Shown: positions 372 to 35,189 of the stretch, in pieces
Numbering within the stretch: position 1 is the first letter of the stretch
How the letters are laid out: each line of letters starts with the position of its first letter
Assembly: GCF_016859285.1 (NCBI RefSeq)
Contig: NC_053416.1
Coordinates: 16,820,501 to 16,884,500, forward strand
DNA from: Xiphias gladius
Taxonomy: Eukaryota > Chordata > Actinopteri > Istiophoriformes > Xiphiidae
Reading direction: 5' to 3'
DNA: 64,000 nt
Notes under the pieces: generated by a model
Told to the model about the DNA's origin: nothing
Databases searched by the model: none
The model's input: only the letters and a program-made list of their open reading frames with translations
Position numbers and translations under genes: made by a program

Positions 372-3589
<3,218 letters not shown>

Positions 3590-11966: not shown

Positions 11967-14649
11967 GACTCCTTAGAAACAACAAATGTACAACACAAAA
12001 CAATAATAACAATAACAATTGGAGCCCCACGTTCCCTGACCTAAAAAACAGGTACTGGACGTGAGAGGTACATTTGAGTTAACTTGTGTTCTTCGGGGAA
12101 TGTACGAAGACAGACTGTCATCTGTCAGAGTCCTCTAGCAGCTCCCACCTTCACTTTATTTTGCACCTTAACAGAAAGCAGAGCTACCGTAAAGTAAGAC
12201 GTGTCCATTTGTTAGCTATGTGAAAATTATTTACTGACGAACATATTAAGGTTTAAATTGGACATACACCGTCTTAAGTTCTTTGTGCACTTTAGTCATT
12301 AATGGCAAAATTAACTAACATTCATAGTGTTCTAACAGGGGCATTATAACAAAGAAACAAAAGAACTTCTATGTGTCATTCTACAGTGCATGGACAATCA
12401 AAGCATTTTGTTGTTTAACTTGAAGAATTTGCTAAATAACTTTCATGCAGTCCCTTAGCGTGGTTTTATGATTTGCCACCCTTACTTTTTCAGACAATTT
12501 CCTGCCCCACCACTCCCACAGTTACAATAAAACACTGTAAAATCTGACACCCTTTAGTGTACGGTGTATCAAGGTGCTGGTGGTTGAGTAAAACTGAACC
12601 TGGCAAGGATCCTGAATTGTGGTGGCCTCATTTCTTATTAAAATTTGCGTTTTTTCTGCCACACTTGAGAAAAATGCCTCCCCCTGCAGAAAACCCACTT
12701 CTCTCACTAACAACTGAGCTTGCCACCCTTTCATCACTGTACAGTATGTAGACAGTGGCAAAAAAAAAAAAAGGAAAGGACTCCCTCATGTTTGTGTACT
12801 CTATATTCCTTACTATACCCTACTACAGTATACTGTCAGACTGACCAAAACTATCTTTGCACAGTTATGGAACAGATTACTATAAAACACACTGTTCTAA
12901 CCCAGATATCTGATACTTATGCACTGTGGAGACCGGGATCCATCAAAGAAATGCAAACATATACTTCTCTATCCACTACTTCTTCATCCAACCGCACATG
13001 ACAATATTCCCACTTCTGAGAACCGCTGGTTGCCACCATGATGCGCCCTCTCTGACCTGGAAACACCCGAGGTTGTAATTTAGACTGAAGATCAAGACTG
13101 ACCTCCACCAGCTGCCGCTGTGACTGTGGTAAATCAGAACAGCGATTATAGCAGCAGCTTAATCCCAGATGATCTCTGCTTTTAAAAGCCACTGTGGCAA
13201 AGGCAGAGAGGGCCGCATCTTTGGAACAGTGCCTAACCTCCATGACAGCTGAAGGAACAGAGACAGTTAAACAGATGCATGAATGGAATCTCAGTCAGTC
13301 AATGGTCTTGACCTTTGTGTACTGGTGTACATTCATTCAATCTTTAAGTCACTGATAGGTTTTTAATCCTATGTATCCAACCTTTAACCTACTGTATGTC
13401 ACTTGTGAGCAAATGTTTTCACCACCTTCAAAATATGAATCATGACTCCTCTGATTGTTTTATTTTGAAATGGTAAAGAGCAATCTCTTGGGGGGGTCAA
13501 AATAATAGACTGTAGTTGTTTCATGGTGGGAGAGAGTGAATTCATTATTTTTATGAAAGATGCAAATTCATTTTTGTTTCCGGTATTGGTTTTTAAGCTG
13601 GGACGTAATAGCTATGCATGTAGGAGATTAGAAGGTGGATTTTCTTTGCATATACTGTTGAGAAAATAAGTAATCCTCTCCATCAACACTGTCATTTTTC
13701 TAAACTGCAGCCTCCTGTGTTTCCCTATTGTTTTCTGTCCATATGTCTGTATTTCATCTGCTTTAGTATCGTTTCATTTTAGCACTCAGTTGATGTCCTG
13801 TCCTTTTCATCAGGAGTAAGAGATTTTAGTTTCCGCTACAGTGGATAGAGGTTCCCACATTCTGTGCTTCTTCATGGTTTGTGTGAAAAACGGGCACTGG
13901 GGGTTGTGGCTTGCACAGGAACCCAGACCCCGACAGTAACACTCAGCACTGGCCTGAAGGGAAGAGACCCTCTCTCTCTTTGTTGGAGCCAACAGTAGCA
14001 GGAAGGCAGCGGTAGCGTTGGTTATGATGGCATGCCCCTGCAGATCAACTGATCAATTGTCCGTATAGGTGGGGAAAAAAACACATTACTACTCAGTGTC
14101 TGAAGAATTGGTCAGAGAGCCGAACTCTCGCAGCCTTCAATGATTCAGATTATGTGGCAGCTGCAGAAGAATGTATACTTCATCCGGGCGCTCTCGTAAT
14201 CTGAACAAATGTAAGCTGGTGGGGTTTCAACACAAATCCCTTACTGTCCCTCCTTTGAAAGATAAAGAGAGAAAGATGCTGATTGCTTTTCCCATCCGCT
14301 TTTACTCAAAGAAGAACCTCACATCAGCAGGAATCATTGTTTGTGACTGGGTGTTGCTGCTGACATGTTAGGACTGGCTTTGTTTTATTTTGGATTTAGA
14401 CTCCACAAAGGAGCGATCGAGACCTTTGATATTTTAAAGGTGCTTTAAGTTCTTGTTTCCAGCAGCTTGATGTCTGACATCCTCGGGCCGGATGTTTCAA
14501 ATCTTCACGAATCTCTATCAAAATAGCACTGCCTTGTTGTTTTGTTTCTATCTCAGAAGCTGATTTTACCTAAAGCAGATGTAGCAGGTAAAACCGAGCA
14601 AAAGAGAAGAACGATTTTCATCAGTTCCAGCACTTGATTCCAGATAACA
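11967..14649. other. Spacer upstream of the kcnab3 distal first exon
   Basis: No coding exon recognised. The 5' leader of the 14650 start must be in here, either directly upstream or as a separate exon joined at the acceptor-like sequence ending at 14643 (TTGATTCCAG). Confidence 0.4.
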
Positions 14650-14945
14650 ATGTTTGCCAGCCGTGGTGGTAGTGGAGGGGGAAAGGGAGGGAAATACTCA
14701 GTGGAAGACCTCTATGGCATCAGTAAGAAGCCCAAGGCATCGTCCTCCTCAGGGAGTATTGTGGCCAAATCTGGGGCCCGGAGCAGCAAGACCTCGGACC
14801 AGAGGACTGAGTCCGAGGCCCTGGCTTCGCAGATCCTGGAGGCGGCGCACAGGCTGGTGGAGCGACGCCGACTGGAGCTCTACCTGAGAGAATGTGGCCT
14901 CTCCCTGGCCGAGTGCGAGGCTGAACGCTCTGCTATGGTATACAG
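14650..14945 (+). CDS. kcnab3: Alternative first coding exon of kcnab3 (distal isoform N-terminus)
   Basis: ATG at 14650 opens a 296-base exon encoding a 98-residue N-terminus that ends ...ERSAMVY plus two bases AG and a consensus donor (AG|GTGAGAG). The last codon is completed by the G that opens the common exon at 30086, giving [13 protein letters not shown]. This is the same phase and the same Arg as the proximal first exon at 19746. The peptide begins with a Gly-rich basic stretch, then Ser/Lys-rich text, then a probable amphipathic helix (LEAAHRLVERRRLELYLREC). The layout recalls the Kvbeta1.2/1.3 N-termini of KCNAB1, including a weak YLxxCxLSxxE match, but it is not the cysteine-containing 'ball' type. 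The isoform would have 426 residues. The AACAATG context has A at -3. Transcription is not proven. Confidence 0.75.
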
Positions 14946-16030
14946 GTGAGAGGGAAAGAGGCAGAACGAGGGGAAAAAGAGAGCGAGAGGTTTGCTCGTG
15001 CATGTGCGGCAAAGTTATGATGTGAAATCACAATGGAATTTGATTTTTTTGAAGATAAAAAGCATGTCAATTATGAGAAAATGATAAGAAATGTAAAACA
15101 TCTTTAAGTTAAACCTTTCTCTTAAACCTGTGAAGAAAGTGTCAGTGAAAGAGTCATAAAAGAGAGATTTTTGACAGATAAAAACAGCCAAATACGGGCA
15201 TAATAATGAAACATGAGGATTTTATAGTTTGATTATCAGCTGCTTCTAAGAAGTAGAAACTGCAGGATAGAGCGAGAACGTCAAACCACCCTGAGCACTC
15301 AGCCATCTGTGGATGATCCCTTTAAATAACATGATTAATATTTTTTCTAATATAATGCATGAATGTAGTTGAGTGTTTGCGAAAGACTGCAATTGAAGGC
15401 AGTGAGTGGAGACATCACTCATGGGTGAAAAAAAAGAAAGATATTTGCAGTTCTTATTTCCACCAGTGACCTAGAAAGACATATCAGGCGTCTATTGAGA
15501 TGTCAAAGCGCAGCAAACGCTGAATAAATGGGGCTGGACTGCAGACACATCGGCTTGCTCAGGATCCCTAGTGTTAATGCCAGATACACTAACTTAAATG
15601 GGACCTCCAAAATTTAGCCTGACGGTGGTCAACATCAGTGGGGCAGAAGTTTAGGATCAGTGATGTAAGATTTGACAGCAGGGGACAGGCAGTGGGTTGT
15701 TGCAGTGCTTGTATCTCTCAGTCAGTGCCCCGTGTAGCTATGTTGGGATGAAATGGTGGCCAAGTTTGGAATGAAACTAAAAGGAGGACACATATAACAG
15801 CATAAACACAGAAGATATATGAAGCATATGTCATCATTGTAGATTTGTTTGCATTTAAGAATATCAGTGGCTTATTTGTGAGTGTCACTCACGATTTATT
15901 GGCTGATGAAAATAATAGTATATAAACCAAATTTTTGGGAAACAGGGTTTTCATGATTCAGTATATCATTTAATTTGATGCACTGTATCCCAAACACACT
16001 AACGCAGTCACTAAGAGTCCAGTAAAGTTG

Positions 16031-16045
16031 CCTCTAGGTGGCAGC
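16031..16045 (+). promoter_or_regulatory. CTCF-like binding motif
   Basis: CCTCTAGGTGGCAGC differs at one position from the vertebrate CTCF core as I know it (CCACNAGGTGGCAGC). It lies between the distal (14650) and proximal (19746) starts of kcnab3, where a boundary could separate the two promoters. Motif only; no occupancy evidence. Confidence 0.45.
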
Positions 16046-17970
16046 GTCACCCTGGTGTGGAGACAAGTCAGCCGTGTGGCACAATCATTCACAGCCAGAG
16101 ATGGAACAAAAGCTGCTGCTTAAAGGGTATCCATTGTATGAACTAGTGACATTTGAAATTTCAGAAAATAAATGCCTCCTTTCCACTCAAATTGAGAACC
16201 TAATGTAGCATTTATTGACAGCATGCATTTGACGAGTGAAATAAATTTATGCCACGCCAGAGTATGATTCAGCTGATTCTATCAGCACTGCTTCCATCAC
16301 TCAAACCGGCTCTTGTGAATTCCCTCTCACGTTTAATGTCTTTAATGGCGGCCATCTCTACAGCCTCTGTGTGTGTGATGTGCTAGCTTCGCTTAATTTG
16401 GGTAATGATGCACCAGCTTTAAACTTCCTCACGACTGAAATTGATTACTTCTAATCAACACAACTGCTAACTTCCACCTTTCTAATTTGCTGGTTTTGCT
16501 GGAAACAACAATTTTTCCACACCAGCTGATCTGCTGAGTGCGGAGCAAACTCGGGAAAGTGAGACAGATTATCAGGGCCGAATGCATGATGTTGTCTTTG
16601 GATAAAATCAAGCTTAAAGGACATATTTAAACACAATACAGTTTTTCAGATGGATTCTGAATTTTGAGGGAGTTAAGTCAAAGCAATTCTACTAAAAGCA
16701 TTTAATAACTGTCCTCTGGCTGTCCTCTTCTTGATGAACTCAATGTCATGCTGAATCGCTTCAACATTAACCAAAACCGTAAGAAAAACAAGATGTCTGA
16801 GAGAATACTTCAAGTATTCCAGTTTCACTGAGGATAAACGCCTTCGGCTTTCTAAAACTACACGCACATTTCATGAAGAGGCACACCACAAACAATGCTC
16901 GGCATTCTTCACTTCTACTCTAGCACAAGCAAGTCAAAACCAGCTGTAAGCACCTTTAGCTACCAGAGAAGTGACCCCTGTGCTTCTTTACTCCATTTAG
17001 GTTTTCTACAGGCCAAAATTCACAATTATTTCGACCGGTTGTTACTGGGAATTGTCAAGTTTTAAAATGAAAATGTAGCCCCATGTGCTGCAGATAGGAT
17101 CAGGCCAGCATTATGCAAATGAGGTTGAGCATTTCATCTAGGCTTTAGACTTAGCAGTTTATAGAGGATCACCGGTAGGAGAGATATGCTTTGTAGTGAG
17201 CTTTGGTGCTGAGTCTGATGGCAGACTTGTATAAAACATCTACCCTTCAAGGACATTCTCATTATACAATCTGTTGCATAAAGCATCTCCATAAGAAAAG
17301 TGGTCATATTTTGCCTCAGTTCCTGAGATCTCAATTTAATGCGGCCTTCTTGTTTGCAGAAAAGTGAATAGACGTATCTAAAGACATACTCAGTTTTGAA
17401 GATGGAGCAGCTGGTGCTCTCTGTAAATGGTTGGATACACAAAGTGAGGCGACTCTTGGAAAACTAACTGATGTGGCTGTCACATCCCAATCTCTGTGCA
17501 GGTACTCGCTGTGCTTTACCAGGACGGTAGATCATTAAACCTCCTCTTTTTAAAATGTCCCAGTGGGTTTCACTCACATTTCCTTTCTGCACGTACAGCT
17601 GGAAACTTCCCATCCCAGCTTGTACTGAATGGCTCTTTAAAGGGAGCTGATTGCCAACTCGCTGGCAGCTCATCCTGGAACTGCAGATAGCTCCAAAGCA
17701 AGATGTCATTAGACGTGAGAGCGAGATGATAGAGGGGATGAATGTTTGTGTGTCTGTGTGCATTTTCATTTGCACAATTGGGGTTCTTTGCAGATTGTCC
17801 TGCTGTGAGAAACAGACGTATCAGAGCAAACACTTGATCAATGGCTGAAACTTTCTGGATTGACAGTCTTCTCTAAGACTATGGCAGCATAGTTTAGCTG
17901 GTAAACACCGCCTTAAAGGGACTATTATCATCGCCTGGTTACCAAATGACACATCCGTTTTATTTTAATC

Positions 17971-18051
17971 TGATGTGATGTGATCCAATATGATATGATA
18001 TGCCATGCTATGCTATGCGATGTGATGTGATGTGATGTGATGTGATGTGAT
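17971..18051. repeat. (GATGT)n pentanucleotide array with variants
   Basis: Six to seven TGATG units at 18019-18050 preceded by variants (GATAT, CATGCTATGC). A short-tandem-repeat locus. Confidence 0.85.
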
Positions 18052-18471
18052 TTAGAAGTCATGAATCTGCTCTTGGTTCTGAGATGATGACGATGGTGCA
18101 GTGTTTCAGTCTAATTTTGGTGTTTGGCCATATAGATACACAGCAGATCAATTGGGGGTAAAAAATACAACAGTTTTTGCACATCCAAACTGGGTGTGGT
18201 AGAAAAACAGATCCTTGCATGTGTGAAAAATTGGAGCCTTTGGCGATTTAACGTGCACTAAAAGTGAAAATTAAAGTGAATATAATGGCTGTAATATCTA
18301 CGCTGTACTAGGCGTTTTGTGTGCTAATATATAAAAAAAAAAATGGTGCATGATGATTTTTTTCGTTTTACTTTCTCAAAGCGCAATAATGCGTATAAGC
18401 TCCCGTAACATAATGTGACGATGTGATGAAATGTGTGTACACCCGTGTGATGAAAAATGTAGCGATCACAC

Positions 18472-18473
<2 letters not shown>

Positions 18474-18530
<57 letters not shown>
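18474..18530. repeat. (GA)n microsatellite upstream of the proximal kcnab3 promoter
   Basis: Uninterrupted GA run of 57 bases, about 1.2 kb before the proximal ATG. Frames translated through it (Arg-Glu or Ser-Leu runs) are artefacts. Confidence 0.96.
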
Positions 18531-18531
<1 letters not shown>

Positions 18532-18959
18532 ATCTCGCAAACCCCCACACTGTTCGTGTGTCGTGAACATTTTTGGAGCTTCTGAAAAAAAAGGACAGGA
18601 AAAAAAAAAAAAGTCGGACTCTGAACTGACAAGATGATGCTGAGGGAGAGCCAAGAGGCGGCATCATGGAGCGTTTGAAATGTCTGCTGCAGCTGATTTT
18701 TGGGCCACTATGCCGGCGTTTTTTTCAAATCCGTGCACCGTGAGATTTGGTCGAATAACAGGAGCCCTGCACAGTTGCTGCTGCTGCCGGTATGTGAGCG
18801 ACCTCACAAACTGAAGGTTACAAAAACCGGCTCTGTGTTTGCTCTCGAATTTGTTGCTGCTTCTTTTTTCCCTCTCTCCATCGCTCTCTATCTCTCTCTC
18901 TCCCTCTCTCTCTTGCATCAATTTGATGCTGCGTGAGGCTGCTGGGCGATGATGCATCG

Positions 18960-19745
18960 TTGGGGTCTGACTGTGTGAATTCGCTTCCTATCAAGTCTAT
19001 TTACCCTGTTCGGACCACGGCAATGTAAATTCGAACAATTGAGCCAGTTTTCTGCTGACCCACCTTGCGACAAAAAAGAGAGGGGGGGAAAAAAAAAAAA
19101 TGCCTTATTTCGACGCGAGGTGCGAAGATGCCTGTAGCTGTGATTGTGTCATTGCTGCGGCACACTCCGGAGCTGCTCGGCTCAAGTCCGCCACAACTAA
19201 CCTCAACTGAAGAGAAGACATTAAGCTGGCGAGTGCTCTACCACCCAACATAAGCCATACGAGCCTGTGCATGTATGTGCGACAAGGCCGAGCGACAGAC
19301 ACTCTCGAGGGAGGCATCTCTTGCACTGAGGTTCGGGGGCTTCCCAAGAACTGCCACATCCTCAGATCCGTCTGAGGACTGCTGCGAGCTTACAAGCTTC
19401 CCGACGATTTTTGGAGGGCAGCCCTGATGCATCTTGCGCGTGTGAAAACTCTAAGAGCCTTTTGCCAGGTTGGCATCATCAGACAAGAGACAGAGCAGAC
19501 GGTGACTCTGTGTGTGTCATGTTAGAGGCTGGACTCTTGCCTGCTCCCTCCAAATCTCTGACCTGCCCCGTCTGAGCCCTTTGTATGAGCATCACTGCTT
19601 TGCCACAACAGCACAACCGGAAACAGTGTCAAGCAGTACCAACAATTTGCAGACATTACTGTTTGTGTGACTTCCTAAAAAAAAAAAAAAAAGGTTTCAA
19701 ACCCCTCAACTCTCAAAATAAGAGACACCGGAAACCAGGGTCAGG
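18960..19745 (+). promoter_or_regulatory. Probable 5' leader/promoter region of the proximal kcnab3 start
   Basis: GC- and CpG-richer sequence directly before the ATG at 19746, with no splice acceptor needed. An upstream open reading frame of 36 codons runs from ATG 19100 to TGA 19208-19210. If the leader begins before 19100 it could dampen translation. Transcription start not determined; no clear TATA box. Confidence 0.4.
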
Positions 19746-22083
19746 ATGCAGGTGTCCTTTGCCTGCACCGAGCACAATCTCAAGAGTCGCAGTGAGGACC
19801 GGCTTTGTGGCCTTCGCACCGCTCCACCTCCTGGAGGAAGCAGTGGAGGAGTAGGGGGTGGCGGTGGAGGAGGTGGAGGTGGAGGCGGTGGTGGCGGTAG
19901 TGGAGGAGGAGGCGGTGGAGGAGGAGGTAGTGGACAAGGGAGCAATGGCAACTACATCTCGCAAGGCTCAGTCAAGACCAGGGAGGGGCCCGGGTCCCGT
20001 CAGATTCCACAGGGCCATGCCCACATGAAGGAGGCCATCGGGCGCCACACCAGTATGAAGTACAGGTGAGTGTGGGCCCGGTGAGGAGACGAGGAGCCGG
20101 AGCTTGAAGCGGTGGAGGGTTAATTCGCATCAGAGGGATCTGACTCAGAGATGGTTTTGATTATTAAGGCCTTTTGACCCCCAGATTATCTCTCAGGTAC
20201 TAGATTATCACAATGAGCATCAGTGAAAAATCCTCCACCAGAAACAAGGTGGAAGGTGATATTTGATCGGTCCTTGTCTAATCATGACGACCTACCAGCC
20301 AGGCTTCCTTTATTTCTCTTTCCGTCCATCTCTTTGTTGAGATGTGAGGCGGATTTAAGGTTAGTTTGAATTATCACCAGCATGCATCTGTAATATACTG
20401 TGCAGACTGCCTCCATGTCCATTAGCCAAGATGAAAGCAACTCGGTGCACATACAGCGATGATTCTACTGACCTTATAAAAAATATGACATTTACTCTTA
20501 AAAACGCTTACTCTGATGGATGTAAAAATGCTTATATAATCCATAGCAAACAGCCATAATGTTATCGCAGTATAACAGACAGAATGCATATAGGAGCATT
20601 TGCCACAGGCTTATGTGTTTAATACAGACTTTGCCCTGGCCCCTGGCTCTTCACCACAGATTAATAAAAAGCCTGCCTCCAATAACAGCTTCCCTAAAAC
20701 CACCCCAGGACACCCAGATTTTCTTGGAGGTTTTGAAAGCATTTAATTTTCATAAAACAGTGTTGCAGCCGAGTATCTCACGCACAGAAAAAACATTGTT
20801 GCACACAGCAGGTCTGAGTCATAACGTAGGAATGAAAAACAGACCAGGAAAACAGCAAGAAAAGACTGTCATTGTCTTTTTTGCCTCCTTTCAGTTTTTT
20901 TGGCACAGAAACAGATTCAGTTCACCTTGATGGATTAGAGCTTCAGCTTGACAAGGACAGCTGTTCGTGCGGCCCGCACTCACACAGGGGTTCTTAGAGC
21001 CATGGAAAAATAATGCACATAAAAACACTCAGCATGCACTTAACATTATATAATCTATAATCTATAGAACCGTAACCTCACAACCACCATCTCTGTCCTT
21101 AATTTTGACTCTAAAATTCAATAACTAGGAGGAGAGTTTTAATGACCTGTTTTCCTGTTAATCAGGTTGATTGAATTGCTGCCATTCTCTTCAGTCTATT
21201 AAATTTTCATTTAATAGGATGTTTAAAAAGGGAATGATGCACAAGATGAAACCCAGATATCTCCACTGCTGTTTCTTTTCTCCTTGAGAATTGCATACGT
21301 ACTTCTGATTGGGTTGGACTATTCTGGTTGTTCTGCTGTCTCTGGAAAAGTGTCAGTATTAGGGATTGCAGCAGCACAATAAGTCTATATAGCATATGGC
21401 CAACTCCAGTTGCCAGTGGCAACACCCCAGGCGTTGCCTTTAGTTTTTGTCTGTCTTATTTCCTAATCAGCCAGCGCTACTGTGACTTATCAGTCCCCTC
21501 TGCAACTGAGCCCGCTCAGAGCCCCACCACCCGGCCACAGAGTCTGTTTGTGGCAGCACAGTGGTCACACGTTCTCCATTTTACACTGTTGTCACAATCA
21601 GACTGTGGTCAGGAAGACACAGGAATGTCCATGAAACACATCCGCATGCTGTATGAATGAGTCTGTATATGTGAGCAGAGAGTAAATGTAGGAGATTTCT
21701 TGAGATGAGGCCAATTGAATATCACAGCAGAGCAGAAGTGAACAACTGCAAATAATTTTGATCTCATCTGTATTCCATTTTACAGATGGCGCCTATCGTT
21801 GCCTCTATTCACCCTGTTTGACTCCATGTTTGCGAATCCCCCCCTGGTATCTCATTAACCTGAGTATTCATCACTCACCAGCAGGTCACAGACAATGGCA
21901 CCTGCTGCCAGTTATCACTCCCATGAGCCCCTGCTGTCATCCCCGGCCCCGACTCTCTCTGAATCTCTCTCTTTAGCTCCTTTCGTTGATCAACGTTTCT
22001 AGATTTCTGACTAATTTTCCCTAAAATACTACAGTGAATACTCTTACAGTTGACTGCAGCATTCTTTGTTTGCAAAGTTGAAA

Positions 22084-22142
<59 letters not shown>

Positions 22143-23943
22143 GTTATGAATATTAGGAGTATAATAGAAAAACAGCTTCATTTATAATAATATAATAATA
22201 ATAATAATATAATAATTGTTACTGTAAATGAACAAAAATCAGTGCATTTATACATTATACATTATTGAATTTTTTGTATCTTAGAAGAGTTGGATAGATT
22301 TCATCTCAATACAAGTGTCACTATGTGATTATAATAATAATTGTAAAAACTGAAAGTTAAATTTCTGTGGAAATGGTGGAAAATCACCGAATAAAGTCTA
22401 CATAATATTAAATAAATGATATAAATATAAAATATAAATAAACAATTACACCCAGATGAACAATTCGTGTTCATATAACTATGTTGGATATCTTCAAATC
22501 TTTTTAAAAGTTCTGAAAACAAAGCAATTATAGTCTTTGTTTTTGTTGGGGGCGGGGGGAGTCTTGAAGTCGCTGAGGCAAAGTTCTGTCACTCAGCAAA
22601 TTGGCTGTTTCTATGGCAACAAGGCCCTCTCCTTTCAGCAACAGCAAACTGCAAAGCCGGTCAGGTTCACTTCCAGCGTAGTTTTATCTACCACTGGTGG
22701 ACATCTCTCATGGATTTTTGTACGTTAATGGCCGCAGGGCACATTGTGTCAGTGGCAGGCAGCTGGCTGCAACTTTCCCAACACATGAGCGAGAGGAGGA
22801 GCATGGAAGAAGGAGAGAAAGCCGTACTAACATAAAACATATGACACTGTAACACGCAGGACAGACAGTCAGACACTGTTAAAGAGTTAAACATTGTTTA
22901 ACAAAATGTCTGTATTGAGGCTGTAAAAAAAACTTCCACGACAGGAGGAAAGACAGACAGGAAGGGATTCAGGGATGATGACACATGAACACCATATCTG
23001 CTTCTTTTTAAATCTGTCATCCCCAGCTCATCTGTCGGCCTCAGCTCATAATTCGCCAGTGCAATAGTTCAGCATTTTGGGAAATAACCGTATTTGTTTG
23101 CTTGCCGAGAGTGAGATGAGAAGATCAGTGCCACGTCCGTACTGTAAATATGAAGCCAGAGCCAGTAGCTGGTTAGTTTAGTTTGGCAAAAAAGACTAAA
23201 CAGCTGATTAAACAAACAAGATATAACGTGTTAATTAAGTGAGCTTTAGAGGTAGGCAGATTTTGTTACCACTGGACAGAGCCAGGCTGGTTATTTCCCC
23301 CTTTTTTCTGGTTTTACACTATGCATTTTTATAGAGCTCTCGACCACATCTCAGTCTGATCGGTGTGAGTTTCATCGGATGCTGTGATGTGGCAGAAAGC
23401 TCTGGAAGAAGTTTTATGGTGGGCCTTGGGTAAGGACTATTTTGTTTAACTTCTATTTTCAAGGTCAAGAATGAACTCTCATGCTCACCTGTCTATAGCT
23501 TGTTTTATTTAAAGAGGAATGACATAATAAGCAGTAGTTAAGGCAGACAACAAATAGAAATGTGCAGTGAGTGGTGATGTACCTCAGAGCTAAACTCTGT
23601 AACAATAATAATAATAATAATACCCAATATTCAGTTGCATGTAGAGAACGAGGATCAGATGTTTTTGCATTTGTATCAGGAGTTGAAGTGTCCTGACATT
23701 CAACTATGCAGAGAGGTTCTGTTCTCTAACGGAGTACACTTGAACAGTGAGCTCTGAAAGCCTGTACTCTCAGCAGCTGATGAAGTAATGATGGAGTCAT
23801 TGGTACTGATGAACAGCCCTGTCAAGTTTTACAGATATACTGTGGTCATTTAGTGCTATGAAACAGTGATCCAGCCCCAGTCTTATTACTCTCACAGTAT
23901 GCCTGTTGTTACAGTTACCCTTTTATACACACTGAGGGCATAC

Positions 23944-23984
<41 letters not shown>

Positions 23985-26900
23985 CTTCACAGCTCCAGTT
24001 TGTTAATTTGCTTACTTTACTTTAAGTGATGTGGTTTTACAGTTGCCATATACATTAAGCTCTGAAAAGCTGTGGGGACATTTACCAGCAGATTATTCTC
24101 AATTTTATAAAACACTATGGAGACCATATGTATTTAACTTGTAATAAATCCCAACCAATGATTAAATGTGCATTCCACATTTGAGTCATGAATAATAATT
24201 AAAGGATAATGAAGTAATTTGGCCTCATATTGTTGTTGTGCTTAATAATGATTTGAAACAAATGGTTTGTGTAGCAGGGAGGAGAAACAGACAGCATGCT
24301 GCACCAACCTTGATCTTAAACTATCCTCTCACTGGGATCCGTGACATCACTTTGAGGTCCTGAAGCAAGTTTTAGACAAAGTCAGACTGTATCTTCACTT
24401 TTCAGAATTCAGCCTGGCCCATAACCAAAAGGTATCCAAACTCTGATCTGCTTTTGGCTGTTAAACTGCAAAAATCTGGCTGCTTATTTCATCTGTAATA
24501 TAACTAATATACAGAGCATTAGCGGTTTGCTAAATGTTATAGTTATTAATAATGAAACTGAACAATAGTTTAGACCATTATTATTTGTGCAGCTGCATGC
24601 TGGAGCTAGATATCAACACCACGTCAACCCCACAAAGATTTTAAAACTTGTACACAGAAAAATACATGAGGCAGATAACTTGTTCTTTTCAAAATGGGAA
24701 GTTACTGCCGGGTCAGTGTTGTTTGATGAGGCTTACATTTGTCAGTATTTGCCTGTAGATGGATGCGATGGCAGCGGCAATCAGCAGGCCCATTCTGAAT
24801 AATCAGGGCCAGAAAATCCACGTCACGTCCTCTGAATAGGCTGTCTAGTCAAAGTCAAGGTCTGATATTGTCTTCTGGCAGAGACAAAGTCATCATTGCA
24901 TTTCATTACTTAAGAGCGGAAACACAGACTAATGAAAGAGTCTCCACAGGTCCTAGAAAATTCTCAAAAAAGTATTTAAATATATGATCTAGATTTAAGC
25001 TCTTTACATGTCTTAAGTGTTTTAAAGTTATCAGTTTTTCTACTCTGCTATTAGATATACTTTTAATTAAAATTCATTTTGGTGTGATAATAAAATAAGA
25101 CTGTTCTGCAGATGGTTTACATAATTACCGAATAAGATGAATAACAAATGTTTGGATCATGTATTTGCATTTAGAAATAATGCTATTGAGAAAAAAAAAG
25201 AAATTACGTTTTTGACAGCTTTCATTTATTTTGGTTGTTGGGATATTCTAAACTGTAAAGACTGTAAAAGTATTTCAACATTTTCAACAAATGTTACTAC
25301 TTCATTGTAGCAAAGAAGCTCTGTTGAGACATTTTCAAGAAACAAAGAGAAACTAGGTAAACTGAGTCCCAGCTTGATGCTAAAAAACACCTTAGCATCT
25401 GCTTTTAATCATTTGAAATTCATCAAGCCGTCAAAGTTGGTATTTATGAGGCAGCAGACCAGGAAACTGGCATTTCATTCTAATATTCATCTTCATCCCC
25501 TTCTCAACAGACATAAAATGGGTCGGCAGGTAGCAGTGCGGTGACCTTTTCAGACAATAGGTTTCACTAATAAACTCCTTTTGAACATGTTGAGATGACT
25601 CAAAATTTAAAGTATATAGGCATTTTTGCATTGTTTCACCTTCAAGTCACATTTTACACCCAGTTTCACCTCAAAATCATAATCCATGCCAATGAAAGGA
25701 GTCTTGCACAAATCCTCATGTTCAGTCGCAAACTTTGAATAGAAAAACAGACACTTCACACAATTCTAAAAAGGTTCACACTTTTCATATTAGGCAGTTT
25801 CAGTTAATAGGAGAGTCACAACCAGCAATTAAGTTTCAGCAGTGGATGCATAACATAGGAGGGGAGCAGCTGAGTTTGCGTGTCTGTATGTGTGAGTGAG
25901 TCTTTGTGTTTTTTTTCCCCTCCATTTGCTCCGCTCACAGCATGTGTATTTTATAATTAGGACGGACCTACTTTCCTAACTGTTTTAATATAACTGAATT
26001 AAAAACATCATGTCATATGAATAGCTTTTTGTTTAGCGGAATTCATCAATAATAGCTGAAGCAAGAATTAGTACACTGTCAGAATTACACTGGGTTCTTG
26101 TCCCTCAGAGTTAAAGAGTCGGTTCACACAAAAAAACCACACATTTTCTCACTTATCTCTCTTGCCATAGAAATTTGGTTTATTTGTCCAGCCCTTGATA
26201 TATCTGTCTCTGAAATTTGTGCCTCTACCGCAACACAATGGAGGTGAAGGGAATTTTGTTTGTTTTGGTCACAGCATTGAAAAATAGTTTGTTTTAATTC
26301 GGCAGCATCAGAAACAGCGTGCCTGATACTCTGGATAATCTTATTAGTGAAACTACTTTCTACTGAAAAAAATAGTCCCTTTAAAAAAACGTTAACAGGT
26401 CTATTATCCAGAGTAACTAGGACACTGACTATAGAAACGAGATGTTGGAGTTGTTTTTTTTTTTTTTAAATTGAATTTATCAGTGCTGTGAGCACCACAA
26501 ATAACATTTATTCACCCCCACTGTGTTGAGGTGGAGGCAGAAATCTCTGCATGGCTAAATGCACGAGAGAACATTTCTTTGTAATTTGGATGAAATGACC
26601 ATTTAAAACCCAGAAACGGAGTAGAGAACAGACAGTCCACAATCGTCCCACAGTTTGTACTCAGAAAATGCATGTATAAGCACACACACACGCGCACACA
26701 CACACTCACACACACTGACGTGAGTGTTATTAATATCTAGGTGTGCTTCCCTCTGGAGAAGAGCCTGCTCAGCATGTGTGTGGCATTTTATGACAACTGC
26801 AGGAAAAAAAAATCCATCATTTGCATCTAACCATCTGTATAGAGTGTCTTCCTCCTGTCTCAGGTGAAAACTAACTGTAAATGTCAGCATAGGTTAAAAT

Positions 26901-28789
26901 GCTGACTACACCATGACAGAGCACCTGCGTGCCTCCTTTCTCCCCTCCATTAATAATGTAAGGAAACAGCCAGGTCCCTATAATCACCTTGTTTGGAGTT
27001 CATGATTTATGGTGAGAGAAAAAATGGACAAGAAAAACATGAGAAGCCCTACTTATAAAGGCTACAGAGAAGCATCTGTGTTACTGTGTGCCCTGCTCAT
27101 GAGTTCAGTCATGCATGACCGTATGTAGATCTGTGCCTGTGTCGGAGTGTAATTCCTATCAAGCGTGAATATCCTCATGAAAGCAACTACCGGCCCCACT
27201 GACGCTCGCACGGTATAGACCTCGTCAGTTTTCGCACAACGTATGCCGAAACCATGTCAGATGAAATATAGGCCGAGTGTCTGTGTACATGCGTGTGTGT
27301 GTGAGAGCGAGCGAGAGAGAGAGACAGAAAGTGTGGGAGAGACTGTCATGAGGGACATAGTGAAAGGAAAGAGAGAGCATGTGTCTCTTCAGACGAACTG
27401 ATAGTAATTTAGCAGACTGCAGCACTGCAGAGAGCGGTGGAGTTGAGAGCAGGGAGGGGGGGGGGCAGTTGTCACACACAGAAACAATGGCATCCTCCAT
27501 TGCTCAGAAATTTTAAAAAAAAAAGATATTGTATGTAATAACTCACCCACTAATGCATACTGGTTTCTCATTTGCTCCTGTCATGATGTGCTCATAGACA
27601 GTGTGCACCAGACATGTTAGTCTGTCAGCTTGGTGCACTTCTTTTAAAGTGCACAAAGCTATGTTCAACATGATGACTGCAAATCATATTGATTATGAGT
27701 ACACTGAAACAGAAGAAGCATTTGTGTAACAGTCGTGGATGCTACTGGATGCTTGACATTCTCCTAATGCTGACTCATGCTTTGTATTCGCCACACATAA
27801 CCTTTCTGTTTTTTCATCATGGTACGAATTTAAACAGGAACATTGAAAGAAGGTGGACTTTTGTGTGACGAAGGTGGGAAACACAGTTGGAATTGGGCTT
27901 TATTAATGTAATTGTTTAACATTTATTATGTACCATTACATGATAGCCGCAGGATAAATAATAGGCTTTTATACATTTTATACATTCTAAAGACATAAAA
28001 TTGTTTTCCATTAAATTTTCCTGAAATTTTTAAAATGTAGGCAATATAATAATAATTACTTCACAGAAACAACCAGTCTGCTGAATATAATGTTGTTGTT
28101 TTTTTTAAAGTTAATATAATATTCACCTTTAAAAATAAGGGTCTAGTTTGGGACTGCAGTTTGAGACAAAAAAGTGTCATGTTATTTATATGCTCTCTAT
28201 CTTGCAGGTGATGTTGAGACCTAAATGCAGCTATTTTTAATGAATGTCAAGCTTTTTACTTGATCAAAGCTCTTTTTTTACTCGCAGGGAGGTTTTTTTT
28301 TGGATGCTGTTATTGGTCCAACCTTGTCAAATGGTTAAAAAAAAAAACAGTTTCCTTTAATGTCCCCCGAGTGAAGTCAAGACAAAATTGTATAATTTGA
28401 TGGATTTCACAAAAAATGCCAGTAAAGGAGAACAAAACAGTGAAAAAAATATTTAAATAACTGACTTGAAAAAAGCTTTAGAAATGGTCTCTGATGTGTG
28501 TTTTTTTTCCCCATGTGCCTCATTTATATTTACTCCCAGTGTTCAAAGTGATTGTTAGTATGTGAGAACAGGCAGGGCTGTCATTGGTTGACAAATGGTG
28601 AACAAGTGCCAGATTACCATACAAGGAATCAGCGACATCAAACCTCACTAACATTTTTCCCTTAACATAGCATCTCCCACCTTCTATCTGTGTACTATTT
28701 TGACAGAGTTTAAAGTTATGACACAAACAATATGCGTTTCACACCCACAAACAGTGCATACATGAACGCTGATGCCCCCACACAGCACA

Positions 28790-28821
<32 letters not shown>

Positions 28822-31800
28822 AAGAGGGACACAAATGCTTACATATGCAGGAATCTAAAAATAGTTTAAGGTCAGGCATTAAAAATAGACCAGAGAAAAT
28901 AAAAGCAGGACTCGTTCGACTGAGTCTAAATGCTCTGACAGTCTGTCTTTCTACATTTGGCCATTTGTGGCGGACGCAGGCAGGAAGGCAGAGAGGGGAG
29001 AGGCGCTGGAGATGAAAAGACGGCAAGCGGCGAGTTGCACTGCAGTTCTGCTGCCTCTCCAGCTGGCTCCCCGGCTAATTAGAATGGGGGAGAGCACACA
29101 TGGAGGAGGAGAGCAAGCATGAAGCCACATCACACATCATTTTCAGCTGTACATGCTCCCGTGGTCAGAATTGCAGCTCTCCGCTTCTCCCTGCTCGCCC
29201 TTCAAAATCCACCTGTCTGGATAATCAGATGTGGCATGTTCGGTAATGGACTCCTCTGTAGCTTATGGAATATTTTTGACCATTTACGGTACAGACAAAC
29301 GAAGCTTTTGCCTTGACTCCATCTGAGCTGAGCTCACTTCCCTCCAGCTGATTCAATGACCCAGCGTAATACACTGAACTACTAACATATGAAGGATAAA
29401 AGGTCAATTGTTCAGAAATAATTAGACACGGGCTGTAATGCAACCACAGGCGAGAGAGACTTTAACTTATCAGCTGTAGTGGAGGAAGTATTCACATCCA
29501 GGACCACTGTGCTAATAAGTTATGTTAACGTTACGCTTTTATCTTGTGTCATACTTCAGTTTTTGCCTAACATCTGGTTTGTGTTACATTCTATGTAATT
29601 TATTATAATTCATTGTAATTCAAAGACTGAATATGTGTTCTTTCAGTTTAGATTTTTAGTACTCTTAGTTTTGCACGTACTTGGACAAGTGTTTTATGAA
29701 AGAACAAAAGTGAGTAAAGTACCTTTACCAAAACGTATAAATACTTTAATTCATCAATTCTAACTACAGCATTATCAGCAAAATGTGCTCAAGTATTAAA
29801 GATAAAAGTATTAATACCACAGTGTTATATCATTATATACAGTATATTATTAGATTACTTTACTGCTGCATTGACAAGTATGCAGCATTTTAATGTTGTA
29901 GCTGGTTGAGGTAGAGCTAATTTTAACTACTCACACAAACCACCGTACAGTAAGATGGGATCTCACGTATGACTGATGTGTGTGCAAACATATCCTAAAT
30001 GCCCACACATCATATGTAGTGTCTTTTTTTCGTTGGTTATTTCTGAGCTTCACAGCCTGCTTTTTCTTCCTTTTTTTTCCCACAGGAACCTGGGGAAGTC
30101 AGGCCTACGTGTTTCCTGCCTTGGGTTAGGTGAGTTGCCTTGAAGGCAGGAAAGTACCCGTCTCTGTTTCAGCTGCTCACACAAAACAAACGTCTCTGTC
30201 TCGCCTCTCATTCAGGCACCTGGGTGACATTTGGATCACAGATCTCTGATGAGGTGAGAGCTCTGTTGTCTCTCTGTTTGCATGAGGAGTCGATTCCCCA
30301 ACACCTTCACTTGGACAGTGCGAACGCAAATCTCAGTGTTTTCAATTATAGAAATGTCCCACAGACCTTGAAACTATAGTAGCTTGGTTAGACATTGTCT
30401 GCATCTCTACTGTATTATCCTCCCTGCATAGTGCCCTACACGGACAACCTCTGGATAATTGGAATTTATCCGTCGCCTCCCTCTCTCAGTCTCAATTTTT
30501 GTGCTCCCTCAGATGGCTGAAAACCTGATGGCCATAGCTTATGAGAACGGAGTGAACCTTTTTGACACGGCAGAGGTGTACGCCTCTGGAAGGTCAGTCT
30601 TCACTTTCGCTTCCAGTCACCAATTCAAACTTTTCCTCTTGTTGAATGTTTTTGTCCCAGTACTTTTATGTGAGCTGCATATCCTCTGATTGTAACTTTT
30701 CTCTCGAGGCAAATGAACAACTCAAAACAGATTGTTCAGGGTTTTTTTTAATCATATGACATGTTTGCAGATCTCCTGTATGCTTTATTATTGTTGTGCA
30801 GTGATGTGAGGTTAGCATCGACCTATCAAAATCAATGATGTATTTCTCCACAGAGCTGAAGTCACTCTAGGGAACATTATCAAGAAGAAAGGATGGAGGT
30901 GATATTACTCATTTTTCCAAACTGACTCACATGCATGTGAAAAGCTTTCTAACTCAATTAGATAATAAATATTTTTTTGAAATCTTAATAATCCATAATA
31001 ATTCATCACCTTTCTGAAATGCACTGCATTTCCGCATGTTTTTATTACTGTTGGAACAGAGGCACTATTAAATTATCTCAAGGGAAATTCATACTTTTTA
31101 GATGAATGAGGAGCTGTAGCCTCGGAGAGACTATAAAAGGATAAAAATGCAACCATGTGAAAATAAACTCCCAGTTCACAATACTGCCAAACACTCATTT
31201 ATGCGGGAAATCCTTGAGATATTTTTACTCTGGAGAAAAATATAAATTGTAAGTAATTACAAATCAAACTTTAAATTAAATTAAGAAAAACACAATACTG
31301 GTATAAATGTATTTTTTAATGTACCATACCAATGATAGCAGGCACAGAGAAACTGACTATTACTCACTTGTATACAGTAGACAAATTTAAAAAATTGAAT
31401 ACTGTATACAGTATAAAAAGTACAAATAAGGAGAAAAGATTGTCCTACTCAAAGTCTGTTTTTCCTACTGAAACTGCCCTCCTAACGCTCTTGTGTCCTT
31501 GCCAGACGTTCAAGTTTTGTCATCACAACAAAAATCTACTGGGGAGGCCAGTACGTATGACACTAAAAACTATAAACTAGACAAAACAGTGTTTGTTTTC
31601 ATTCAAAATCCTTGTTCTCTTTTATCATTTCAATAGAACATCAATAATGTGTATTTTCAACATTCCACAGAGCTGAGACGGAGAGAGGACTGTCAAGAAA
31701 GCACATCATTGAAGGTAAAGTATAACTTTTTTTTACAGTAAAGTACCTGGATTTAATGTATTAAGAATAATGACTAAATAAGGTTCAGGGTTAGGCCCAG

Positions 31801-34800
31801 GGCCTGAATCTTGAGTTTATCACTCAATACATCCAACAGCAGTCTGATAACTCAAATATAATCAGAAAGCTGCCAGAGCTGTGTATTATTACTGATTTTT
31901 TGTTTGTTTGCTGAACATATGTTAGGACATTAATTAAAATTTCAAAAGTCTGGTTTTATCAGATTGTGCAGAACTTTTAGTGTAGATGAAATGCTTCCCA
32001 TAGTGCATTAGTTCAACCCCAGAACAGGCCTGAGTTGTGATGCCACCTTAGTCTTTGAATATAAGTATTCTGTGTGTCGCTCAATTAAAGCCACTTCATG
32101 TCACGTCACAGCAAATACATCATCATGCCTTAAAACACACACACACAACAATAACTGTAAAACAATCTAACGGGCTATTGGCCTTGTATACGGTCATCTT
32201 CTTTGTTTGTTTTGTAAGTAGTATGGCCTTGAGGTGTCCATTTCCCAAAGACTTGAATGGGCCGTTTGACCGTCATTGTAATGAGGCTTTTCGTTTGAGG
32301 CAGTTGTGTGATGTGTGAACTACGTGTGACTCTCAATGTTTGCACGGCATGCAGAAACAGCGCTCATACGTGGCCTTCATACAGTGTGTCATCTCATTTG
32401 TGACTTTAACCTCTACATCAACTGCAGACAAACCAAGATTAGAAAGTTGGCAGACAATTACCTAAAAAAAATTGGCAGTAGAAAATATAGTGTAAAAATT
32501 TCAAAAACAGTAACGTCTTCCAGAATGGTTTATTTTTACCCATTTAGTAACATATTGTATGGAGTTTTACTAATGATTTCTTGGGAATCTGCAGTATGTC
32601 GTCAAAATGTTTAATTGTTGCTCAGATGCTCTTTTTAGCCACGCCAGCAACGTGGCTCTGTTAATGGCAATGTTGGTCAATCGGTCTGCCACTTTGGTCC
32701 AGACTGAAATATCTCAAGAACTGCCTCATAGATTCCCGTGAAATTTTACAGATAATCAGGGTTAAAAAAAAAATTAAAAAAAAATGAATGTCCCTGGAAG
32801 ATGAATCTCTGGCTATGGTGATCCCCAAGTACTTTGGTTTATGACCAAAACTGCAAAACTACTGACATTCCCATCAACCGTTCTTTGTGTTTAGTGCTAA
32901 TGGGCATGTTAAACATGGTGACATTATAACTGCTAAACATCAACATTTTCATAGTGAGCATGTTAGCATGCTGAGGTTAGCCATTAGCTCAAAGCACCGC
33001 TGAGCCTAAATGCAGCCTCCCAGAACCACTAGCATGGCTGCTGACTTTTAGATGATGATGACTAATAATTGACCATTGTTCATGACAGGTTTAAGAGGAT
33101 CCTTATCAAGACTCCAGCTAGATTATGTGGACATTGTTTTTGCCAACAGAAATGATGTCAACAGTCCCATGGAAGGTCAGTTGTTTGCTGATATGCAGAG
33201 ATCATGATGTAGTTATAGTGGCGTATTTTTATGTGTGAAAAAATTGCAATCAATCGTAGTACAGTGATTAAAAAAAGTGTAATTTCAATATAATGTTATA
33301 TACTGTGATTTTCAGAGATCGTACGGGCCATGACCTTTGTAATAAACCAGGGTATGGCCATGTACTGGGGAACCTCACGCTGGAGTGCCATGGAAATCAT
33401 GGTGAATGCTCATCTCCCATTCTTTACGAATTTAATGTCAGCTTATGGCACAAATGCTCATCGGTAACCATGGCATTTTGTTTGTGTCCATTTGGCACCA
33501 GGAGGCGTACTCGGTGGCACGCCAGTTCAACCTGATACCACCTGTGTGCGAGCAAGCGGAGTATCACTACTTCCAGAGGGATAAAGTCGAGGTGCAGCTT
33601 CCTGAGCTGTACCACAAGATCGGTCGGACATCCACAGTCTCACAGCTCTATTTATCTTTAATTTTTTGACTGAAGGTGGTTTAGTTCCAATGTATACCCT
33701 TATTCCACTCTTTCAGGTGTTGGAGCAATGACCTGGTCTCCACTTGCTTGTGGATTAATCACAGGGAAGTACAGTGATGGTGTACCAGAGTGCTCCAGAG
33801 CAGCAATGAAGGTCAGTTTGATTTGACTGGTCCTCCTCTGAGATCTATCTCCCTGATCAGCGAGGTATTGTAGTGTGAAATCAGTATTGGCGTACTGCAT
33901 GTTGCCTTATCAATGCATTTCTCCATTTTGCTCCTGGTGAAGGGATATCAGTGGCTGAAGGAGCGAGTGAACAGTGAGGAGGGCCGCAGGCAGCTCGCTA
34001 AAATCAAGGAGCTCCATCTACTGGCAGACAGACTGGGCTGCACTGCTGCACAGTTAGCCATAGGTACGACCCAGGCAAATGACATGATTATACAGTGTAT
34101 AGGTGCAGGGACTTGTTCTTTGTTTATTTTTTAGTTGTGTGACTGGAAGCTAAGATTGGGCTGTTTTCAGATTTGAATGTTTTCAAATCTTAAATGTGTT
34201 TGTGGTACTAGTAGGGTCACAAAACTACTGATTCAAAAATGTTATTTCACAAATAGGTAAAGTCCAGTCAAAATTTGAATCAAGGGGCTTTACAATCTGC
34301 GCAGCATATGAAATCCGCTTTCCTTTGACCCTCGAAGTGAATAAGAAAAAACTTTCCCAAATTATTATGCAAAGAGAAAGTTACACAAAAGATCTGAACA
34401 TGATTTAGCATGATTTAGTACACCACATAAATGTGTCCTATGTGCCCATCTGCATGTGCGCAGCCACTTTACTCCTGATCAAGTACTTTATTTGTTAATT
34501 ATATTACTTTTTTCCATCTTTGTGTTTATTCAATAGTGTGTATTTATTGTTTGAAAGCATGATTTGTCCAATGCATATCCTTGCTTATCTATTACAAAAT
34601 GCACTGATTTTGGATCACTGTCATGACCAGCTGATCTTAGACCAGAAGTCCTGCTCAAATACATTTGGTAGATACATGTTAAATTTGGCCAGTAGACTCA
34701 AACTTAAAACAGTGGCATGTGATCTGACTCCTGCAAAAAACTAAAAATTCTTGTAGTTGATATTCTTTGGTTATCAATGATATCACTCAGTTTTAACTGA

Positions 34801-35189
34801 GCACAAGTTCTATTGGTTTTCTCACTTTTTTTTACAGCCTGGTGTCTGCGCAGTGAGGGAGTCAGCTCAGTACTTCTGGGAGTTTCTAATACAGACCAGC
34901 TACTTGAGAACTTGGGTGCCCTCCGGGTAAAATTTCTTCCTTTTTTTCCTCCCACGTGAATAATTTTAAGTGACATACTTAGCTACAGTTGTCTAAACCA
35001 ATAGTTATGTCACTTTGTGTGCACTACAAAGTGGCAAAACTGACAGATCACAGCAGATCACATTTTTAACTGATTGCCATCCTTCCCTCCTCATCACAGA
35101 TTTTATCCCAAATGACCCCTCAAACCATTACTGAGATTGATGCCCTGCTGGGAAATAAGCCACACTCGAAGAAAGAGTCACGCGCTTGA
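19746..35189 (+). CDS. kcnab3: Voltage-gated K+ channel beta subunit, KCNAB3-like (proximal isoform)
   Basis: Cytoplasmic aldo-keto-reductase-fold subunit that docks on Kv1 channel tetramers and tunes gating. Exons: 19746-20065, 30086-30129, 30216-30253, 30513-30592, 30854-30898, 31506-31550, 31671-31714, 33089-33175, 33316-33401, 33502-33622, 33717-33811, 33943-34063, 34838-34926, 35100-35189; phases agree throughout and give 434 residues. The N-terminus [19 protein letters not shown] is the Kvbeta inactivation 'ball' with Cys7, followed by a long Gly-rich linker coded at about 19836-19935. The core has [20 protein letters not shown], the catalytic Asp and Tyr in [10 protein letters not shown], the Lys in [10 protein letters not shown] and the Asn in VFANR. 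The end, [20 protein letters not shown], and the Gly-rich linker fit KCNAB3 better than KCNAB1 or KCNAB2, as judged from memory. A second first exon at 14650 can replace the first one. Confidence 0.92.
22086..22141. repeat. (GT)28 microsatellite
   Basis: GT dinucleotide run of 56 bases in kcnab3 intron 1, followed about 40 bases later by ATA/AAT-rich sequence. Confidence 0.96.
23067..23304. repeat. Rearranged MITE copy, family B
   Basis: Begins AATAGTTCAGCATTTTGGGA and continues GCCGAGAGTGAGATGAGAAG...AGCCAGTAGCTGGTTAG, the left arm of the same family as 59945-60382. It then changes to inverted text (AACGTGTTAATTAAGTGAGC, GACAGAGCCAGGCTGG) that corresponds to the right arm. The inner parts are shortened. 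Confidence 0.65.
23942..23985. repeat. (CA)n microsatellite
   Basis: CA run of about 44 bases with two G interruptions in kcnab3 intron 1. Confidence 0.93.
26112..26606. repeat. Fold-back MITE-like element in kcnab3 intron 1
   Basis: The left arm (26112-26292) and the right arm (about 26484-26606) are inverted copies. The left reads GCCTCTACCGCAACACAATG with GTCACAGCATTGAAAAAT; the right arm, reversed, reads GCCTCCACCTCAACACAGTG with CTCACAGCACTGATAAAT. The outer ends also correspond (TAAAGAGTCGGTTCACAC against TAAATGGTCATTTCATCC). Divergence suggests an old insertion. Confidence 0.65.
28794..28820. repeat. (CA)n microsatellite
   Basis: Short CA run in kcnab3 intron 1. Confidence 0.9.
32618..33055. 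repeat. Dispersed fish repeat in the kcnab3 intron before the 33089 exon
   Basis: Contains TTTGGTCCAGACTGAAATAT, CTCAAGAACTGCCTCATAGA, GAGCATGTTAGCATGCTGAG, TTAGCTCAAAGCACCGCTGA and CTAGCATGGCTGCTGACT, phrases that I recall from a very common dispersed teleost repeat. Orientation and family name cannot be fixed without a library. Confidence 0.6.

What the first reader, a model, noticed from the sequence alone, without database searches (positions are those of the whole stretch)
14650..14945. kcnab3 has a second, distal first exon giving a different channel-gating N-terminus
Two exons 5 kb apart each begin with a good ATG and end in a phase-2 AG|GTGAG donor, so both complete the same Arg of the common exon at 30086. 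The proximal one codes a cysteine 'ball' peptide. The distal one codes a basic, Ser-rich region with a probable helix and no comparable ball. From memory, alternative N-termini are well documented for KCNAB1 and KCNAB2 but mammalian KCNAB3 is usually described with one. If real, the fish gene could make a non-inactivating Kvbeta3 form.
Basis: partly seen in the sequence, partly recalled or inferred. Interest (0 to 1): 0.72.

Follow-up and report, generated by a model that had tools for sequence, protein, structure and literature searches.

The report
Extra first exon in fish kcnab3
A fish potassium-channel helper gene has a second, genuine starting exon that gives the protein a different tip, of a kind known from a sister gene, so it probably lets the fish switch how its channels shut off.

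Summary
14650-14945 is an intact 98-codon exon with a phase-2 CAG|GTGAGA donor; it joins in frame to the common exon at 30086 and gives a 426-residue kcnab3 protein. Three results show a real coding exon. (1) In frame it has coding-type codon use. (2) A second kcnab3 gene in the same genome (contig C12) has the same exon in the same place and order: 48 of 90 residues identical, dN/dS 0.29, equal to the accepted first exon. (3) Open frames of the same class, all ending TAC-AG|GT, lie upstream of the four other kcnab genes found in this genome. The class is the Kvbeta1.2/1.3 first exon of KCNAB1, which in mouse also lies distal to exon 1.1. The new tip begins MFASR (paralogue MFAGR), resembling the Kvbeta1.3 ball (recalled MLAAR), whose Arg5 is the reported PIP2 contact. 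I expect a Kvbeta1.3-like inactivating tip without the cysteine ball, not a non-inactivating form. Transcription, junction use and gating were not testable here. In the papers searched I found no second Kvbeta3 N-terminus.

The parts
14650..14945 (+). distal alternative first coding exon (Kvbeta1.2/1.3-class N-terminus), phase-2 donor
   Evidence: ORF and donor, codon use, conserved paralogous exon with dN/dS 0.29, same-class open frames upstream of the four other kcnab genes found
14650..14694 (+). putative ball tip MFASRGGSGGGKGGK; Met1, Phe2, Ala3 and Arg5 shared with the C12 paralogue
   Evidence: low-confidence, unstructured in the model
14788..14937 (+). helical linker, residues 47-82 and 86-96, of the Kvbeta1.2/1.3 class
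   Evidence: AlphaFold2 single-sequence model, pLDDT block means 63 for residues 41-50, 92-98 over 51-90 and 82 over 91-98; end-anchored similarity
19746..20065 (+). proximal first coding exon (Kvbeta1.1/3.1-class cysteine ball, poly-Gly linker)
30086..30129 (+). common exon 2 ([15 protein letters not shown])
30216..35189 (+). remaining 12 common exons (30216-30253, 30513-30592, 30854-30898, 31506-31550, 31671-31714, 33089-33175, 33316-33401, 33502-33622, 33717-33811, 33943-34063, 34838-34926, 35100-35189) coding the aldo-keto-reductase core
   Evidence: open spliced frame; Kvbeta2 structures match at E down to 3.9e-182

Best explanation
The exon at 14650-14945 is a genuine alternative first coding exon of kcnab3. 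Transcripts that start upstream of it skip the proximal exon and splice 14945 to 30086. They give a Kvbeta3 subunit whose cysteine-ball tip is replaced by a Kvbeta1.3-like tip: a mobile, Gly/Ser/Lys-rich stretch beginning MFASR, then a long helix that joins the core. The architecture (1.2/1.3-class exon distal, 1.1-class exon proximal, common exon 2) is the one known for KCNAB1. Because the six kcnab genes found in this genome all have an open frame of the class on the upstream side, it probably dates from the single ancestral Kvbeta gene. Shown: the exon, frame, splice phase, paralogue conservation, class and order. Inferred: promoter use and the splice junction. Also inferred, with less certainty (about 0.55): the tip still plugs Kv1 pores, with Phe2 and Arg5 in the roles of Leu2 and Arg5 of Kvbeta1.3 (Leu2 recalled), and is tunable by PIP2 rather than by the redox state of Cys7 (recalled).
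For: Intact exon, donor and frame. Codon use. The C12 paralogue has a distal exon at 19370991-19370687, a proximal exon at 19364117-19363900 and exon 2 from about 19359663, all minus strand, same order. The distal exons are 48 of 90 aligned residues identical, dS 1.43, dN 0.42, ratio 0.29; the proximal exons also give 0.29; the only three blastn matches between window 13000-21000 and 50 kb of C12 are two inside the distal exon and one over the end of the proximal exon, running 5 bases past its donor. A recalled Kvbeta1.2 query against the 690.8-Mb genome returned five matches at E up to 10, and four of the five lie upstream of the four other kcnab genes. All four are open frames ending TACAG|GT in phase 2. 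The window exon's last 30 residues match those of kcnab1-C7, kcnab2-C21 and kcnab2-C469 better than any of 5,000 shuffles. Mouse Kcnab1 exons 1.2 and 1.3 lie 132 and 169 kb upstream of exon 1.1 (PMC6509479, passages). Tip similarity to Kvbeta1.3. Arg5 of Kvbeta1.3 reported critical for PIP2 (PMC3456799, passages).
Against: No RNA evidence. No other fish species could be searched. The window tail is closest to Kvbeta1.2 (local z 7.7) while the tip, and the C12 exon as a whole, are closest to Kvbeta1.3 (global z 6.6), so neither one-to-one orthology is settled. The last 26 residues also resemble recalled Kvbeta1.1 (0 of 20,000 shuffles as good), so the tail alone does not exclude the 1.1 class. 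With the recalled 1.3 tail the distal exon is only among the best places of the window, at 22 against 25 elsewhere. Three of the four whole-genome Kvbeta1.2 matches have E above 1, and neither kcnab3 distal exon was returned by that query; the window peptide as query returned only itself, C12 and a weak C9 place. Kcnab1-C14 does not match the window exon by local alignment (4,679 of 5,000 shuffles as good; end-anchored 43 of 5,000). C12 matches C7 locally (1 of 5,000) but C14, C21 and C469 weakly or not at all, and none of the four end-anchored. PIP2 control of Kv1.5/Kvbeta1.3 was not reproduced in intact cells (Kruse et al. 2012 as told in PMC3456799). In mouse cortex only exon 1.1 of Kcnab1 was detected (PMC6509479). 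The human Kvbeta sequences were recalled, not fetched.
Confidence: 0.78

Rival explanations
1. The exon is real, but its tip does not enter the pore. It gives a non-inactivating, Kvbeta2-like subunit that dilutes the ball-bearing form.
For: No cysteine near the N-terminus (Cys only at 82 and 89). The first 15 residues are Gly-rich and the tip is unstructured in the model. The tip differs from recalled Kvbeta1.3 at positions 2, 4 and 6.
Against: Met1, Phe2, Ala3 and Arg5 are kept in both kcnab3 copies, and the tip resembles Kvbeta1.3, a variant reported to inactivate Kv1.5. Ball domains need not carry cysteine (established knowledge, recalled).
Confidence: 0.25
2. Chance open frame or a dead relic exon that is no longer used.
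For: One of 200 shuffled sequences gave a frame as long. Three upstream ATGs lie within 200 nt. No transcript data.
Against: dN/dS 0.29 at dS 1.43 against the paralogue, codon use, an intact donor in both copies, and similarity to three further exons.
Confidence: 0.04
3. The distal exon is not an alternative first exon. It splices into the proximal exon, or belongs to another upstream gene.
For: Read by eye, an acceptor ending at 19738 (AAACCAG|GGTCAGG) would also be in frame.
Against: No pyrimidine tract precedes that AG (by eye, not scored). The last residues MVY(R)-NLGKSG match the Kvbeta junction, and KCNAB1 uses such exons as alternatives.
Confidence: 0.04

Closest known systems
KCNAB1 alternative first exons 1.2 and 1.3 (Kvbeta1.2, Kvbeta1.3)
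   Same: Distal position, phase-2 donor ending Tyr/His-Arg, helical linker, Kvbeta1.3-like tip, order distal to the 1.1-type exon
   Different: Lies in kcnab3; one exon shares the tail of 1.2 and the tip of 1.3; 4.8 kb upstream of the proximal exon instead of 132-169 kb as in mouse
Kvbeta3.1 (KCNAB3, single described N-terminus)
   Same: Same core gene and same proximal cysteine-ball exon
   Different: The distal first exon is not listed for mammalian KCNAB3 in the review passages read (PMC13031570)

Membership tests
Kvbeta (KCNAB) subunit gene | Aldo-keto-reductase core with [10 protein letters not shown] start | tested here: met
   Spliced protein matches Kvbeta2 structures, E down to 3.9e-182
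KCNAB3 rather than KCNAB1/2 | Core groups with KCNAB3 | tested here: met
   ML tree joins fish and KCNAB3 (human cores recalled; four taxa; topology test not completed). Shares 15 of 48 KCNAB3-only residues, 4 of 15 KCNAB1-only, 4 of 20 KCNAB2-only; overall identity is 78.9, 79.2 and 77.7% (to KCNAB3, 1, 2), which does not separate them
Kvbeta alternative first exon, 1.2/1.3 class | Own ATG, phase-2 donor in frame with exon 2 | tested here: met
Kvbeta alternative first exon, 1.2/1.3 class | Sequence similarity to the class | tested here: met
   Kvbeta1.2 local z 7.7, 0 of 2,000 shuffles; Kvbeta1.3 global z 5.8, 0 of 2,000; kcnab1-C7 and both kcnab2 frames 0 of 5,000 end-anchored; kcnab1-C14 not met by local alignment; tail also resembles Kvbeta1.1
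Kvbeta alternative first exon, 1.2/1.3 class | Transcribed from its own promoter | not testable with these tools
   no RNA data held
Kvbeta1.3-type inactivation ball | Hydrophobic residue 2 and Arg5 | tested here: met
   MFASR and MFAGR in the two copies
Kvbeta1.3-type inactivation ball | Fast N-type block of Kv1 pores, relieved by PIP2 | not testable with these tools
   needs electrophysiology
Kvbeta1.1/3.1 cysteine ball | N-terminal MQVS.AC with Cys7 | tested here: not met
   Distal exon has Cys only at 82 and 89

The most novel reading that the evidence does not exclude
The single Kvbeta gene before the vertebrate genome duplications already had two first exons: a cysteine ball and a helix-linked tip. 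This fish keeps the second in all three gene families (kcnab1, kcnab2, kcnab3; six genes found). Each gene could then choose between a redox-sensed ball and a lipid-sensed or silent tip; the KCNAB3 copy would have gone undescribed, or been lost, in mammals.
Probability: 0.5. Interest if true: 0.55.

Novelty: new member of a known kind. Interest (0 to 1): 0.42.

Why it matters
KCNAB3 is described as a one-tip gene, and a study of paddlefish electroreceptors, which express it with Kv1.5, proposes that the pair forms a rapidly inactivating channel (PMC5429088, passages). A second, conserved tip means one gene could set two kinds of channel closing, and models that assume one form may miss the other. 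It would also date the alternative-tip system to before the split of the Kvbeta genes.

Tried and rejected
Chance open frame: rejected. PDB search with the peptide gave two matches at E 1.3 and 8.6 (a Gly/Ser linker and a leucine-rich-repeat protein); Pfam gave none up to E 1. A PDB search with the recalled Kvbeta1.3 N-terminus gave none up to E 0.01. Bacterial/archaeal genome and viral collections: pattern matches but no relative. A third first exon in the window: scans with 1.2, 1.3, 1.1 and 2.1 tails pointed to nothing convincing beyond the two known (ungapped, so a divergent one could be missed). The same kind of scan of 50 kb around the C12 gene found its proximal exon but not its distal exon, whose tail is five residues shorter. 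Kcnab1 first exons in the 35 kb before exon 2 of the C7 gene: none recognised. The IQ-TREE topology test printed an error; only the ML tree is used. Searches for Kvbeta1.3-type and 1.1-type exons of fish kcnab1 did not complete. Literature on a second KCNAB3 N-terminus: 20 of 20 listed; 20 of 20,601 listed; 15 of 1,576; 1 of 1; 6 listed of 9; none seen in the listings, and the long lists were not read through. led to PMC6509479; one search asked about KCNAB2 (listing only). Nine papers were opened (PMC3634772, PMC9317154, PMC5429088, PMC4614385, PMC13031570, PMC3456799, PMC3437463, PMC6509479, PMC3711925), passages only.

Full report
What is there. The window is C17:16820501-16884500 of a 690.8-Mb assembly. 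It holds a complete kcnab3 coding frame on the + strand. The distal candidate, 14650-14945, reads 98 codons from ATG plus AG, then GTGAGA; the proximal exon, 19746-20065, does the same with 106 codons and GTGAGT. Both end TAC AG and complete Arg with the G at 30086. Splicing either one to 13 common exons gives one open frame to a stop ending at 35189. The core matches Kvbeta2 structures and groups with recalled human KCNAB3 in a four-taxon ML tree. Overall identity alone does not separate the three human genes (78.9% to KCNAB3, 79.2% to KCNAB1, 77.7% to KCNAB2), but the fish shares 15 of 48 KCNAB3-only residues against 4 of 15 and 4 of 20 for the others.

Is it more than chance? In the 30,085 bases before exon 2 only three ATG-to-phase-2-donor frames of 25 or more codons exist, and only the two first exons exceed 50. 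Among 200 dinucleotide shuffles 13 had a frame of 50 or more codons and 1 had 98 or more. Codon log-odds, trained on the common exons and a neighbouring sialidase frame, is 31.2 in frame, at most 13.7 in the other five frames of the same DNA, and at most 11.1 in 19,500 overlapping non-coding windows (the windows were not required to be open frames, and part of the gap to them may be composition).

The paralogue. A whole-genome DNA search returned one place besides the exon itself, on C12. It is a second kcnab3 gene with the same layout: distal exon 19370991-19370687 ending TACAG|GTGAGA, proximal exon 19364117-19363900, exon 2 from about 19359663. A query with the 327-residue core gave 43 matches on six contigs: C17, C12, C14, C7, C21 and C469 (the tool scores only the best candidates, so this is a lower bound). 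From exon peptides, by eye and without a tree, C7 and C14 look like kcnab1, C21 and C469 like kcnab2, a pair of each as expected after the teleost duplication. A SAM domain, probably of an Eph receptor (recalled), lies near both kcnab3 copies, though with a different relative orientation; the neighbouring sialidase was not found in the C12 stretch fetched. Between the two distal exons 48 of 90 aligned residues are identical; dS 1.43, dN 0.42, ratio 0.29, the same ratio as for the proximal exons (33 of 63 identical). Three blastn matches link the two loci over the stretch compared: two inside the distal exon, one over the end of the proximal exon and 5 bases beyond. This is purifying selection on a protein, and it does not rest on memory.

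Which class. Against recalled human N-termini, the window exon best fits Kvbeta1.2 in its last 29 residues (local z 7.7, 0 of 2,000 shuffles) and fits Kvbeta1.3 over its whole length (global z 5.8, 0 of 2,000; local 8 of 2,000). It fits Kvbeta2.1 and 3.1 weakly at best (67 and 107 of 2,000 global). Kvbeta1.1 is intermediate: 8 of 2,000 global, 65 of 2,000 local, and its last 26 residues align end-anchored better than any of 20,000 shuffles (1.2: 1 of 20,000; 1.3: 3 of 20,000). The proximal exon fits 1.1 and 3.1. The C12 exon fits Kvbeta1.3 (global z 6.6, 0 of 2,000) and not 1.2 (162 of 2,000). Scanning six frames of the 64-kb window, the recalled 1.2 tail picks 14869-14943 as its best place (40 against 27 for the next); the recalled 1.3 tail does not (22 against 25 elsewhere). 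1 of 300 shuffled 1.2 tails reached a best score of 40 somewhere in the window. Searching the whole genome with the recalled 1.2 N-terminus gave five matches at E up to 10, four of them upstream of the four other kcnab genes: C7 at 1.5e-7, C14 at 1.7, C21 at 3.0, C469 at 8.1; the kcnab3 exons were not among them, nor did the window peptide as query return the other four. The DNA at the four places reads open frames that all end TACAG|GT in phase 2. Compared with each other, the window exon matches C7, C21 and C469 with 0 of 5,000 shuffles end-anchored (local 15, 2 and 5 of 5,000); against C14 it does not match locally (4,679 of 5,000; end-anchored 43 of 5,000), but C14 matches C7 (0 of 5,000). 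The C12 exon matches only C7 well (local, 1 of 5,000) and none of the four end-anchored. So the class is shared, though not every pair shows it.

Known parallel. PMC6509479 (passages) reports three alternative first exons for human KCNAB1, finds the mouse counterparts of 1.2 and 1.3 at 132 and 169 kb upstream of 1.1, and says neither was annotated in Ensembl. The fish kcnab3 order is the same. PMC13031570 (passages) lists only Kvbeta3.1 for mammals. PMC4614385 (passages) counts Kvbeta1.2, 1.3 and 3.1, with 1.1, as able to induce N-type inactivation.

How it most likely works. The AlphaFold2 model of the 98 residues (single sequence, mean pLDDT 75.4) has low confidence over about the first 50 residues, a helix at 47-82 and a second at 86-96. 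That fits a mobile tip on a helical linker joined to the core. The tip starts MFASR here and MFAGR in the paralogue, like recalled MLAAR of Kvbeta1.3, whose Arg5 was reported as critical for PIP2 (PMC3456799, passages; the same text says a later study in intact cells found no PIP2 effect). The distal form lacks the cysteine ball. My reading is a switch of the sensor on the ball, not loss of the ball. This step is inference, as are promoter and junction use.

Novelty. The kind is known (KCNAB1); its presence in kcnab3 was not seen in the listings I searched (of which 18, 40 and 58 were only partly listed). Gene databases of other fishes were not available and may already hold predicted models. 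The broader reading, that the two-tip system predates the split of the three Kvbeta genes, is supported by an open frame of the class on the upstream side of each of the six kcnab genes found in this genome, and needs other species. Whether the kcnab2 frames are known first exons of kcnab2 was not tested.

Noticed in passing
L056 (C21:13705413-13705190) and L057 (C469:240268-239928), minus strands: Both kcnab2-like genes have a first-exon-like frame of the same helical class (tails MEDFLKMNGLALEECVSYQTGMKY and LEDFLRMNHVSLRDSMSYSTGMIY) with phase-2 donors.
   Followed up: partly
L054 (C7:9681160-9681431) and L055 (C14:13332062-13331806): Kvbeta1.2-type first exons of the two kcnab1-like genes; the C7 one lies about 67 kb before exon 2.
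   Followed up: partly
19843-19928: Gly-coding tandem tract inside the proximal exon; the C12 copy has only short Gly runs at the matching place.
   Followed up: no
L002:1-1480: A long repetitive tract (units like GTCTAACACTGTCTCACCT, seen by eye) sits directly next to the donor side of the distal exon in the C12 copy.
   Followed up: no
2909-3217: SAM domain (Pfam SAM_1, E 1.1e-9), probably the end of an Eph receptor; a similar SAM lies about 46 kb from the C12 kcnab3 distal exon (L015:6691-6831).
   Followed up: partly
41447-42481, minus strand: Sialidase-like (BNR_2, E 4.4e-35) long exon downstream of kcnab3.
   Followed up: no
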